In this document: positions 2,808-4,152 of the stretch, in pieces
How the letters are laid out: the number at the start of each line of letters is the position of its first letter
Position numbering within the stretch: position 1 is the first letter of the stretch
Source: Natrinema soli
GTDB lineage: Archaea > Halobacteriota > Halobacteria > Halobacteriales > Natrialbaceae
DNA: 5,024 bases
Reading direction: 5' to 3'
Assembly: GCF_028618695.1 (NCBI RefSeq)
Contig: NZ_JAQIVI010000713.1
Location: forward strand, 1 to 5,024
Notes under the pieces: model-generated
The model's database searches: none
The model's input: only the letters and a program-made list of their open reading frames with translations
What the model was told of the DNA's origin: nothing
Made by a program: the position numbers and the translations under genes

Positions 2808-3089
2808 ATGGTCGAGAACGTCATCTGGCCCGCCTATCTCGATGCGAGCCTCTCGAGGGCCGAGGGACGGCGCGTGTCCGAGGATCTGGCGGTCGAGGAA
2901 CCGACGGTCGACGAGATCGCGAAGTCCGTCCAGCAGATCGGGTACGACGCCACGATCGAGCGGGACAAGTCCTACTCCCGAGAGCACTGGGCCGACCGGG
3001 GCCGGGTCGTCGTTCGCGGGGCCGACGACTCGAGCAAAAACGATCTCGTCCAAGCCGTGGCGGCGTACGTCGTCGCGATGCGCGACTGA
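2808..3089 (+). CDS. srp19: Signal recognition particle subunit SRP19
   Basis: SRP19 binds the tips of helices 6 and 8 of the 7S SRP RNA and organises them so that SRP54 can load. The particle then targets ribosomes making membrane and secreted proteins. The 93-residue product matches the usual haloarchaeal length. Visible family features are the N-terminal NVIWPAYLD strand (residues 4-12), EGRRV (about 19-23), and the RNA-binding basic-aromatic segment [17 protein letters not shown] (about 55-71) before a C-terminal helix. The ATG at 2808 is chosen over an in-frame TTG at 2769 because the protein aligns with the family from [12 protein letters not shown] and because a TATA-like site lies about 27 bases upstream. 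gar1 begins 1 base after the stop, so the two are almost certainly co-transcribed. No 7S RNA gene was found in this window. Confidence 0.95.
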
Positions 3090-3090
3090 A

Positions 3091-3348
3091 ATGCGCCGAG
3101 TAGGCGCAGTCGTCCGGACCGCGCAGGGACTGGCCGTCCTCCGAGCGGACGAGGCGGACGACGCCGGCAGCAATACGCCCGAGGAGTTCCGCGACGAGAT
3201 CGGCACGATGGTCCTCGACGACGACCTCGAGGGGGTCGGCCGCGTCGTCGACGTCTTCGGCCCCGTCTCGAGGCCGTATCTGGCGGTGACGCCGGACGAC
3301 GGCGTTCACCTGCCGTCGCTGATTGGATCAACGTTGTACGCGCGGTAG
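3091..3348 (+). CDS. gar1: H/ACA ribonucleoprotein complex subunit Gar1
   Basis: Gar1 is a small beta-barrel protein of the H/ACA RNP (with Cbf5, Nop10 and L7Ae). It contacts the thumb loop of Cbf5 and promotes substrate turnover during RNA-guided pseudouridylation of rRNA. The 85-residue product shows the family core GRVVDVFGPVSRPYLAV in its centre (about residues 50-66), preceded by the acidic loop TMVLDDDLEGV and ending with the strand GSTLYAR. The N-terminal strand RVGAVVRTAQGLAVLRAD carries an acidic, Asp-rich insertion (DEADDAGSNTPEEFRDE), consistent with a salt-in halophile. It starts 1 base after the srp19 stop and has no promoter of its own that I can see. A T-rich tract follows the stop. 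Haloarchaeal Gar1 is commonly this short. Confidence 0.92.
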   Translation: MRRVGAVVRTAQGLAVLRADEADDAGSNTPEEFRDEIGTMVLDDDLEGVGRVVDVFGPVSRPYLAVTPDDGVHLPSLIGSTLYAR

Positions 3349-3532: not shown

Positions 3533-3632
3533 AGGTGAACGGGGAACGAGGTGACCCGTGAGCAGACGGAGAGCGAAGCGATCCGTGAGCAGGCCGTCCG
3601 AACGACAGTGAGGGCGGCCGACGATGCCGTGC

Positions 3633-3670
3633 GATGGATGAGTGAGTGAGCGGAGCGAGCGAACGAATCG
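3633..3670. repeat. Degenerate tetranucleotide tract (GAGT/GAGC/GAAC words)
   Basis: The plus strand reads as successive 4-base words close to GAGY: GATG, AGTG, AGTG, AGCG, GAGC, GAGC, GAAC, GAAT. This is low-complexity, purine-rich DNA of a kind I recall from haloarchaeal intergenic regions. It does not code for a recognisable protein in any frame. Confidence 0.5.
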
Positions 3671-3723
3671 GTTGGGGAGGGCGTTGCGATTCCTGTTGCC
3701 GCGATAGCAGGACTCTTCTGTTA

Positions 3724-3731
3724 CTTCGAGA
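3724..3731. repeat. Target-site duplication, left copy
   Basis: CTTCGAGA lies immediately outside the left inverted terminus. The identical 8 bases lie immediately outside the right terminus at 4145-4152. Eight-base duplications are typical of IS6-family insertion. Confidence 0.8.
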
Positions 3732-3747
3732 GGCTCTGTTGAAACCC
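3732..3747 (+). repeat. Left terminal inverted repeat
   Basis: GGCTCTGTTGAAACCC begins directly after the left target duplication. It matches the IS6-family terminal pattern GG..CTGTTG.AAA, with A in place of the usual C after TTG. Confidence 0.75.
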
Positions 3748-3758
3748 TATCATTCAGA

Positions 3759-3779
3759 TATGTTTTAGCGCGAAACATA
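3759..3779 (-). repeat. 7-base hairpin downstream of the small passenger gene
   Basis: TATGTTT (3759-3765) pairs perfectly with AAACATA (3773-3779) around the loop TAGCGCG. It lies about 40 bases after the stop of the minus-strand small gene and inside the left end of the element. It could stabilise or end that transcript, or be a subterminal transposase-recognition structure. Confidence 0.4.
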
Positions 3780-3817
3780 CGCTCACTATATGTGCGAACG
3801 TATCGTCACCTGTCGAA

Positions 3818-4015
3818 TCACCCATCAGTGGGTACAGTTAGGGGGAAAACAACATAGAACGTGAATGCAAGACCGATCCCAGTCCCAATAGCGGAGAAAG
3901 TCGTCTCCTGCCAAGACTCCCCAAACCCGCCGATCCCGATTACAAACCCCAGACCTAAACCAAGAAACAGTCCTAAAATGGCTCTCTGAAGCGGAGATTG
4001 AAAAATATCACGCAT
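3818..4015 (-). CDS. Small two-helix membrane protein carried by the element, function unknown
   Basis: I do not recognise this 65-residue protein. It has a short polar head (MRDIFQSPLQRA), then a glycine-rich hydrophobic helix (about residues 12-30, GLFLGLGLGFVIGIGGFG). A short acidic/aromatic turn (ESWQET) follows, then a second hydrophobic stretch (about 40-60, AIGTGIGLAFTFYVVFPLTV), so a hairpin of two membrane helices is likely. Repeated GxG spacing suggests close helix packing. Codon use is unlike the neighbours: TTA, TTT, CTT, GGT, ATT and AGA are common, where the host genes prefer CTC, GTC and CGA. This points to foreign origin or weak selection. The ATG at 4015 is supported by a TATA box centred about 25 bases upstream, giving a leaderless transcript. 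It could be a passenger gene, a small toxin-like or regulatory membrane peptide, or a chance frame; the TATA box and amphipathic layout favour a real gene. Confidence 0.6.
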   Translation of the reverse strand: MRDIFQSPLQRAILGLFLGLGLGFVIGIGGFGESWQETTFSAIGTGIGLAFTFYVVFPLTVPTDG

Positions 4016-4036
4016 ATCTGAAAATAGCTGTCATGG

Positions 4037-4044
4037 CTTATAAA
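4037..4044 (-). promoter_or_regulatory. TATA box of the small membrane-protein gene
   Basis: Read on the minus strand this is TTTATAAG, one of the best archaeal TATA matches in the window, preceded by the AT-rich CTATAA. Its centre is 25.5 bases before the ATG at 4015, so transcription would begin at or within a base or two of the start codon. Confidence 0.6.
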
Positions 4045-4128
4045 TTATAGCAATTGTACGATACATTGTGGCTGTTCACTGTCTCACCTGTACTTGCTGC
4101 AGAGGGTACCAACCCTATCATCTTCTAA

Positions 4129-4144
4129 GGATTTCAACAGACTC
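4129..4144 (-). repeat. Right terminal inverted repeat
   Basis: Read inward on the minus strand this is GAGTCTGTTGAAATCC. It matches the left end at 13 of 16 positions, with an uninterrupted 10-base core. Its outer tip has GAG where the left end has GGC. Confidence 0.72.
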
Positions 4145-4152
4145 CTTCGAGA
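4145..4152. repeat. Target-site duplication, right copy
   Basis: CTTCGAGA is identical to the copy at 3724-3731. Removing the element and one copy would restore an uninterrupted site reading TGTTA-CTTCGAGA-TTATC. Confidence 0.8.

What the first reader, a model, noticed from the sequence alone, without database searches (positions are those of the whole stretch)
3724..4152. Non-autonomous IS6-like element with a clean 8-base insertion footprint
Inverted ends (13/16 matching, core TCTGTTGAAA) sit exactly inside an identical 8-base direct repeat CTTCGAGA. IS6-family elements have such ends and such duplications, but this 413-bp unit encodes no transposase. The diverged ends but intact duplication suggest a MITE-like derivative mobilised in trans, which may be undescribed.
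Basis: partly seen in the sequence, partly recalled or inferred. Interest (0 to 1): 0.8.

Follow-up and report, generated by a model that had tools for sequence, protein, structure and literature searches.

The report
Transposase-free gene cassette in haloarchaea
A 413-base mobile cassette in a salt-loving archaeon carries one small membrane-protein gene and no transposase; it belongs to a family of similar cassettes that carry very different genes and appear to be moved by a transposase of another family than first thought.

Summary
In detail: 13/16 inverted ends at 3732-4144 lie exactly inside the perfect 8-base repeat CTTCGAGA. One relative, Natrinema zhouii, shows the unoccupied site. (1) Transposases inside elements with these ends are IS5-family (named relatives ISHxa2, ISHla2), not IS6; the IS6 elements whose ends could be read have other ends. 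(2) It is not empty: it carries a conserved 65-aa gene. It belongs to a haloarchaeal set of cassettes with shared ends and mostly unrelated passengers (histidine kinase, SCO1, ABC transporter, cupin, Mrr nuclease, regulators). Of 116 convergent end pairs collected, 53 have 8-bp flanks with at most 1 mismatch (control 35 of 13,340 cross pairs); 27 of these hold no IS5 transposase sequence. The cassettes use a conserved right end (RE-A) with no IS5 transposase within 400 bp inside it: 0 of 36 by a strict motif, 0 of 74 by a loose one; the transposase-side end has it in 39 of 40 and 41 of 42. It works like a bacterial mobile insertion cassette. Mobilisation in trans is inferred, not shown.

The parts
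3724..3731 (.). left copy of the 8-bp target duplication CTTCGAGA
   Evidence: N. zhouii has one copy of the corresponding target (CCTCGATC in the alignment, 5 of 8 bases alike) and no element
3732..3747 (+). left terminal inverted repeat GGCTCTGTTGAAACCC
   Evidence: one base different from the ends of IS5 elements
3732..3799 (+). conserved left end (LE), 68 bp
   Evidence: 59/68 to the LE consensus; matches to the ends alone (left, right or both) in 42 of 125 Natrialbaceae genomes (counted from the list)
3732..4144 (.). the whole transposase-free cassette, 413 bp, GC 0.45
3818..4015 (-). passenger gene: 65-aa protein with two hydrophobic glycine-rich segments (by eye), no Pfam family
   Evidence: codon comparison with relatives
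4036..4050 (-). TATA-like stretch CTATAATTTATAAGC about 20-35 nt upstream of the passenger start (by eye; inferred promoter)
   Evidence: sequence; inference only
4085..4144 (-). cassette-type right end (RE-A), 60 bp, inner motif AAGTACAGG
   Evidence: 53/60 to the RE-A consensus; classed RE-A
4129..4144 (-). right terminal inverted repeat GAGTCTGTTGAAATCC (read inward)
   Evidence: two bases different from the ends of IS5 elements
4145..4152 (.). right copy of the 8-bp target duplication CTTCGAGA

Best explanation
It is a mobile insertion cassette: a transposase-free element made of an IS5-type left end, a passenger gene for a 65-aa membrane protein, and a cassette-type right end. An IS5-family transposase of the ISHxa2/ISHla2 kind, encoded elsewhere in the cell, binds the shared ends, excises or copies the unit and inserts it with an 8-bp staggered cut, leaving CTTCGAGA on both sides. 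Shown: the anatomy, the empty site in one relative, the shared ends, the 8-bp duplications of IS5 elements with these ends, and the range of passengers on the same ends. Inferred: that this transposase acts in trans on this cassette, and how genes get between the ends (perhaps through cassette-transposase fusions followed by loss of the transposase, as L285, L274, L265 and L261 suggest).
For: TSD and ends. Empty site in N. zhouii. Ends-only matches to other elements. L266: 1238 bp, GGCTCTGTTGAAATCCT at both ends, perfect TSD AGAAGCTC, 273-aa frame that is IS5 family: NCBIfam 219.6 bits, cut-off 140; Pfam DDE_Tnp_1 67 bits, cut-off 23. 16 of the 30 IS5 loci fetched have a perfect 8-bp TSD outside such ends. 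The window's LE matches the far end of one of them at 80% over 54 bp (G110:C1:3324777-3324830; element L284). 53 of 116 convergent pairs have TSDs with at most 1 mismatch against 35 of 13,340 cross pairs; 27 of the 53 lack IS5 transposase similarity. TIR pattern: 606 hits against 8 of the reversed control in 30 genomes chosen for a match (sums of the rows). ISHxa2 (94.5% aa) and ISHla2 (91.9% aa) are named relatives; the ISHxa2 locus L368 has the perfect TSD CACCGTCT around a 2490-bp element with two further genes inside. The passenger looks constrained in most comparisons.
Against: RE-A was not found beside an IS5 transposase (strict motif 0 of 36; loose motif 0 of 74 within 400 bp and 1 of 74 within 1000 bp), so recognition of RE-A by this transposase rests on the shared outer bases. 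The window's own genome is not held, so whether it encodes such a transposase is unknown. Relatives of the passenger (L240, L332, L333, L105, L106, L334-L336) sit elsewhere without clean ends, so the gene may also persist or spread by other means. Against the closest relative, L240, constraint is weak (dN/dS about 0.63). The empty site is seen in one relative only, at 63% identity. The window's own ends differ from the IS5 ends by 1 and 2 of 17 bases.
Confidence: 0.8

Rival explanations
1. IS6-family MITE: an IS6 transposase recognises the GG..CTGTTG..AAA tips.
For: The tips fit the IS6 description in PMC7986276 (passages), and 8-bp duplications occur in IS6 elements here. Two IS6 transposases lie inside RE-A ends (L113/L182 and L141).
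Against: 0 of 30 fetched IS6 transposase loci gave a pair of such ends bounded by a matching TSD or matching each other. The IS6 elements whose ends could be read have other ends. The IS6 in L141 has its own ends and a perfect TSD, and the one in L182 aligns to an IS6 element with its own ends, so both look nested. IS5 transposases do have these ends.
Confidence: 0.05
2. The cassette belongs to an undetected autonomous family that carries LE and RE-A with a different transposase; the IS5 elements share only the outer tips and LE-like sequence.
For: RE-A was not found with an IS5 transposase within 400 bp inside (0 of 36 and 0 of 74), and its conservation over about 58 bp suggests recognition beyond the tip.
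Against: Among the longest frames within 1.3 kb inside the 74 loosely defined RE-A ends no transposase recurs often: by eye IS6 twice, and an IS5 of another group, an IS1595, a TnpB-like and one further transposase-like frame once each. LE occurs on 16 of the 26 transposase-bearing pairs.
Confidence: 0.12
3. A dead relic: an old IS5 element whose transposase decayed and whose interior happens to hold an open frame, with no later mobility.
For: The two ends differ from each other at 3 of 16 positions; no second full-length copy was found.
Against: The duplication is still perfect and N. zhouii has the empty site, so the insertion is younger than that split; the interior shows no IS5 similarity and holds a gene conserved in other genomes.
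Confidence: 0.1

Closest known systems
Mobile insertion cassettes (MIC231 of Bacillus cereus; qnrD mic of Proteeae)
   Same: Inverted repeats without a transposase gene, target duplication, a passenger gene; MIC231A1 is described as mobilised in trans by the IS231A transposase (PMC3913671 passages).
   Different: IS5-type ends in archaea; a wide range of passengers; a conserved cassette-type right end not seen beside the transposase.
IS5-family ISHxa2 and ISHla2 and relatives (haloarchaea)
   Same: Same outer ends; ISHxa2 locus with a perfect 8-bp duplication; left end shared with many of these elements.
   Different: Those encode a 273-aa transposase and have another right end (RE-tnp). The far end of the ISHxa2 element is of neither class, and the ISHla2 locus fetched (L367) has non-matching 8-bp flanks.
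ISH2 of Halobacterium
   Same: Transposase-free haloarchaeal element, described as mobilised in trans by the ISH8 transposase, whose ends are related; ISH2-type elements contain an open frame (PMC10264941 and PMC3119063 passages).
   Different: 10-11 bp duplications in the table seen; described as one element type rather than many passengers. Sequence not compared here.
MITEHsal2 of Halobacterium salinarum
   Same: 413 and 411 bp, TSD 8 and 6 bp in a table of PMC10264941.
tIS (insertion sequences with passenger genes)
   Same: Several IS5 elements here hold another long frame beside the transposase (L282, L291, L293, L294, L305, L308).
   Different: The window unit has no transposase.

Membership tests
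Mobile insertion cassette (MIC) | two inverted repeats with no transposase gene between them | tested here: met
Mobile insertion cassette (MIC) | target duplication | tested here: met
   CTTCGAGA twice; empty site in N. zhouii
Mobile insertion cassette (MIC) | carries a non-transposase gene | tested here: met
   65-aa frame with homologues; dN/dS below 0.5 in 6 of the 7 comparisons used
Mobile insertion cassette (MIC) | mobilised in trans by a related IS | not testable with these tools
   needs an assay
IS5 family (ISHxa2/ISHla2 group) | shares terminal inverted repeats and 8-bp duplication with IS5-transposase elements | tested here: met
   1 and 2 differences in 17 bases
IS5 family (ISHxa2/ISHla2 group) | encodes the IS5 transposase | tested here: not met
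   no similarity in 3732-4144; so it uses IS5-type ends but is not an IS5 insertion sequence
IS5 family (ISHxa2/ISHla2 group) | transposase-side right end (RE-tnp) | tested here: not met
   the window's right end is RE-A
IS6 family | tip sequence GG, CTGTT, AAA | tested here: met
   against the description in PMC7986276
IS6 family | IS6 transposase element with the same ends | tested here: not met
   (30 loci from six genomes, plus further loci)
MITE | short, IS-like ends, no transposase | tested here: met
   413 bp
MITE | non-coding and present in several similar copies | tested here: not met
   conserved ORF; no full-length second copy among the candidates scored or in the plasmids

The most novel reading that the evidence does not exclude
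Haloarchaea share an open pool of transposase-free gene cassettes: one gene or small operon between a common left end and a dedicated cassette right end (RE-A), moved in trans by widespread IS5 transposases. Passengers are exchanged between cassettes and IS5 elements, so the ends act as a reusable carrier for horizontal gene transfer, an archaeal functional counterpart of MICs and, loosely, of integron cassettes.
Probability: 0.45. Interest if true: 0.75.

Novelty: new variant of a known kind. Interest (0 to 1): 0.58.

Why it matters
Haloarchaea are known for heavy gene exchange (recalled). A family of small cassettes that carry regulators, transporters, enzymes, a restriction nuclease and small membrane proteins on one set of ends would be a concrete, testable vehicle for it. 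Such genes are easily annotated as ordinary chromosomal or plasmid genes, because the elements carry no transposase. Recognising the two ends lets anyone list candidate cassettes in a genome. The dedicated right end raises a direct question: what does it add that the transposase-side end does not?

Tried and rejected
IS6 parent: IS6 transposases were searched in seven genomes (six had them), 30 loci were fetched and more stretches; those whose ends could be read have other ends. IS1595 parent: element L188 held an IS1595-like frame, so IS1595 loci were searched and five near-identical copies in one genome compared; that IS has its own ends, and the same end motifs can be read inside L188, so there it looks like a nested insertion. 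Two copies of the passenger in G095 turned out to be one: the two stretches are 99.7% identical over 6.5 kb at the two ends of one contig, which I read as an assembly overlap. The relatives of the passenger were searched for decayed ends; L335 and L336 keep left-end-like sequence, the rest only short inner motifs (by eye), so they were not counted as cassettes. Rfam and tRNA scans of the window gave nothing. No structure prediction was run.

Limits. Loci were fetched by similarity to the window, to its ends, to the transposases or to the TIR pattern, so the counts are not unbiased genome-wide rates. The listing was cut, and 20 stretches with visible candidate pairs were fetched. One search scored at most 2 matches per genome and its list was cut; one search scored at most 5 per genome. 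In the codon comparison I do not use L335 (19 aligned residues) and L115 (11 residues). End classes are fuzzy motifs: the 74 RE-A ends come from a loosened motif and include some misread left ends (both ends of L091 and of L127 came out as RE-A); the stricter count is 36. The 'longest frame' used to compare passengers is not always the likely gene (L110, L115).

Full report
OBSERVATION. The window reads as a Natrinema-like chromosome segment: genes of an ABC transporter (ABC_tran, FecCD and periplasmic-binding domains), SRP19 (2808-3089), a Gar1-like gene (3091-3348, below the Pfam cut-off) and, after the element, a presenilin-type protease (from 4296). Its best SRP19 match is Natrinema versiforme (96%); the relative with the most similar DNA over the window is N. 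zhouii (77% over 3473 bp and 89% over 734 bp). The 8-base repeat CTTCGAGA at 3724-3731 and 4145-4152 brackets a 413-bp unit whose ends match at 13 of 16 bases. Three of 300 Markov resamplings of the window hold any comparable arrangement.

EMPTY SITE. Of the 80 loci fetched with SRP19, 48 could be anchored on both sides of the intergenic region. In N. zhouii (L002) the joined window flanks match 38 of 60 bases across the junction, with no element and one target copy; elsewhere in that 10-kb locus the next best match is 29 of 60. In the other 47 the best match near the junction is at most 28 of 60, i.e. background, so they say nothing. One of them (L005) has a longer spacer than N. zhouii, but no end of this type was found in the L005 locus at up to 4 mismatches.

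ENDS ARE SHARED, INTERIORS ARE NOT. In 125 Natrialbaceae genomes, 47 matched the element at E <= 0.001. In 42 of them at least one match is to an end alone (about 1-77, mostly 1-68, or about 342-413). In seven there is a match to the interior instead (G095, G019, G090, G091, G093, G066 and, over 87 bases, G096). The ends therefore occur with other interiors, and the interior in other surroundings.

A FAMILY OF CASSETTES. In the final tally over the window and the loci from L081 on, 312 distinct ends form 116 distinct convergent pairs 150-4000 bp apart. The 8-bp flanks agree perfectly in 42 and with one mismatch in 11; in 13,340 cross pairings the figures are 13 and 22. Of the 53 pairs with at most one mismatch, 26 show IS5-transposase similarity and 27 do not. 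The longest frames of these 27 (one has none) give two related pairs at E <= 0.001 (L082/L273, L095/L355). Nineteen of the 27 were tested with Pfam, and 11 have a domain above its cut-off: HalOD1 (L095, L355), PALP (L117), PAS/HATPase kinase (L171), SCO1-SenC and YtkA (L173), ABC_tran (L181), GNAT (L278), cupin (L091), AsnC-type HTH plus DUF7344 (L109), HTH_10/BAT (L357) and Mrr_cat (L363). Eight had none above cut-off (L082, L110, L264, L272, L273, L276, L360 and the window). L115, L127, L269, L270, L271, L279, L344 and L365 were not tested. The pattern GGCTCTGTTGAAAYCCT with up to 2 mismatches occurs 606 times in 30 genomes against 8 for the reversed pattern (sums of the rows; these genomes were chosen because they had a match).

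THE TRANSPOSASE. L266 (1238 bp, perfect TSD AGAAGCTC) has GGCTCTGTTGAAATCCT at both ends, from which the window's ends differ by 1 and 2 bases, and a 273-aa frame of the IS5 family (NCBIfam 219.6 bits, cut-off 140; Pfam DDE_Tnp_1). Relatives at any distance occur in 113 of 125 Natrialbaceae genomes. Of the 30 loci fetched with it, 16 have a perfect 8-bp duplication outside such ends. Similar proteins are annotated on plasmids as ISHxa2 (94.5% identity) and ISHla2 (91.9%). The ISHxa2 locus has CACCGTCT on both sides of a 2490-bp element that also holds a hypothetical gene and an RDD-family gene; its far end is of none of my classes. The ISHla2 locus has non-matching flanks. IS6 transposases were searched in seven genomes; those whose ends could be read have other ends. 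An IS1595 candidate was set aside.

TWO KINDS OF RIGHT END. The transposase-bearing elements typically start the transposase 53 bases inside one end (RE-tnp); of the 26 transposase-bearing pairs, 16 have the LE type at the far end or at both ends. The cassettes mostly have LE and a second right end, RE-A (majority consensus GGCTCTGTTGAAATCCTTAGAACATGATAGGTTTGGCACCCTCTGCGGTAAGTACAGG). With a strict motif, IS5 transposase similarity lies within 400 bp inside 0 of 36 RE-A ends, 39 of 40 RE-tnp ends and 7 of 77 LE ends (5 ends with mixed motifs and 89 others set aside, of which 27 of the 89 others have it). With a loose motif the figures are 0 of 74, 41 of 42 and 7 of 81, and within 1000 bp 1 of 74, 41 of 42 and 26 of 81. 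In 392 Halobacteriales genomes, drawn evenly from a larger group, 137 match the RE-A consensus at E <= 0.001, but many hits cover only the outer 22-40 bases; in the visible part of the list I count 64 genomes with a match of 52 or more bases. The window has LE and RE-A.

LINKS BETWEEN CASSETTES AND IS5 ELEMENTS. L285 is a unit with the perfect duplication GAAATAGA that consists of LE, a 99-aa frame and an RE-A-like end, then a full 273-aa transposase frame whose own outer end is missing, and another LE. L261, L265 and L274 hold broken transposase remnants plus another frame inside duplications with 0, 1 and 0 mismatches. A 360-aa FMN-dependent enzyme is the passenger of the IS5 element L293, and a protein 86% identical over 303 residues lies inside an RE-A end in another genome (L350, partner end not found). 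These suggest how passengers enter and leave, but the steps are inference.

THE PASSENGER. The 65-aa protein has no Pfam family and four homologues besides itself in the protein search (which reaches only relatives sharing short exact words). Against relatives, dS and dN are L240 0.073/0.046, L332 0.231/0.051, L333 0.381/0.167, L105 0.447/0.170, L106 0.723/0.122, L336 0.518/0.223 and L334 1.53/0.30. Six of these seven indicate purifying selection; the closest (L240) is weak. These relatives sit at other places, two of them at one locus next to a uridine-kinase-like gene (by eye), and lack clean ends. The function of the protein is unknown; two hydrophobic segments suggest a small membrane hairpin (by eye).

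A SECOND END CLASS. Five cassettes (L264, L269, L273, L278, L279) have a GTGCTGAATACAG-like motif in both ends. Another IS5 subgroup with the tip GGCCTTGTTGAAACCCT has perfect 8-bp duplications (L314, L316, L317), and the far ends of L314 and L316 carry that motif or a near form of it. The arrangement may therefore have arisen more than once.

WHAT IS IN PRINT. Searches of the open paper library for passenger genes with IS1595, MITEs in haloarchaea, IS1595 with haloarchaea, mobile insertion cassettes, these with archaea, ISH1 and MITEs, passenger genes with haloarchaea, Natrinema with MITE terms, ISHla2, and cargo genes with haloarchaea showed no description of this cassette family in the listed titles and opening lines of abstracts, nor in the passages read. 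Passages were read in PMC7986276, PMC3119063, PMC10264941, PMC10544981, PMC3913671 and PMC10969869; all others were seen only as search listings. Related prior art: ISH2 is a transposase-free element with an open frame, moved by ISH8 (75, 76), and one passenger gene of a haloarchaeal transposon has been noted (77, 89). The library lacks most subscription papers, the 2007 archaeal IS review among them, so absence there is not proof.

VERDICT. The element is real, and its mobile nature is well supported. By function it is closest to mobile insertion cassettes; the conserved cassette end and the breadth of passengers make it a new variant of that kind.

Noticed in passing
window 3594-3722: Part of a dispersed intergenic repeat (with ...GCGAACGAATCGGTTGGGGAGG...) found again in L002, L018, L174/L096, L240/L102/L331 and L027; the element sits just beside it, and the relative of the passenger in L240 also lies near a copy.
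   Followed up: partly
window 3539-3592: Two tandem 27-bp units, 81% alike.
   Followed up: no
L363 182-1557: A 1376-bp cassette with perfect duplication AGCTATTT carries an Mrr-type restriction nuclease gene, i.e. a possible defence gene as passenger.
   Followed up: partly
L285 960-2610: A cassette fused to an IS5 transposase frame that lacks its own outer end, the whole flanked by a perfect 8-bp duplication.
   Followed up: partly
L293 324-1406 and L350: A 360-aa FMN-dependent enzyme (isopentenyl-diphosphate isomerase-like by recall) is a passenger of an IS5 element and, 86% identical, lies inside an RE-A end in another genome.
   Followed up: partly
L264, L269, L273, L278, L279: A second set of cassettes with a GTGCTGAATACAG-like motif at both ends and 8-bp duplications of 0 or 1 mismatch.
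   Followed up: partly
L188 1312-4289: A 2978-bp unit with perfect duplication AAATATTG carries a BCCT transporter gene, an IS5 remnant and what looks like a nested IS1595 element.
   Followed up: yes
L171, L081, L109, L090, L092, L098: Several cassette ends, mostly in N. zhouii, are flanked by TCTCGATT or near variants, which may point to a target preference.
   Followed up: no
L331 and L240 (genome G095, contig C1): The two ends of one contig overlap (99.7% over 6.5 kb), an apparent assembly redundancy that mimics a second copy.
   Followed up: yes
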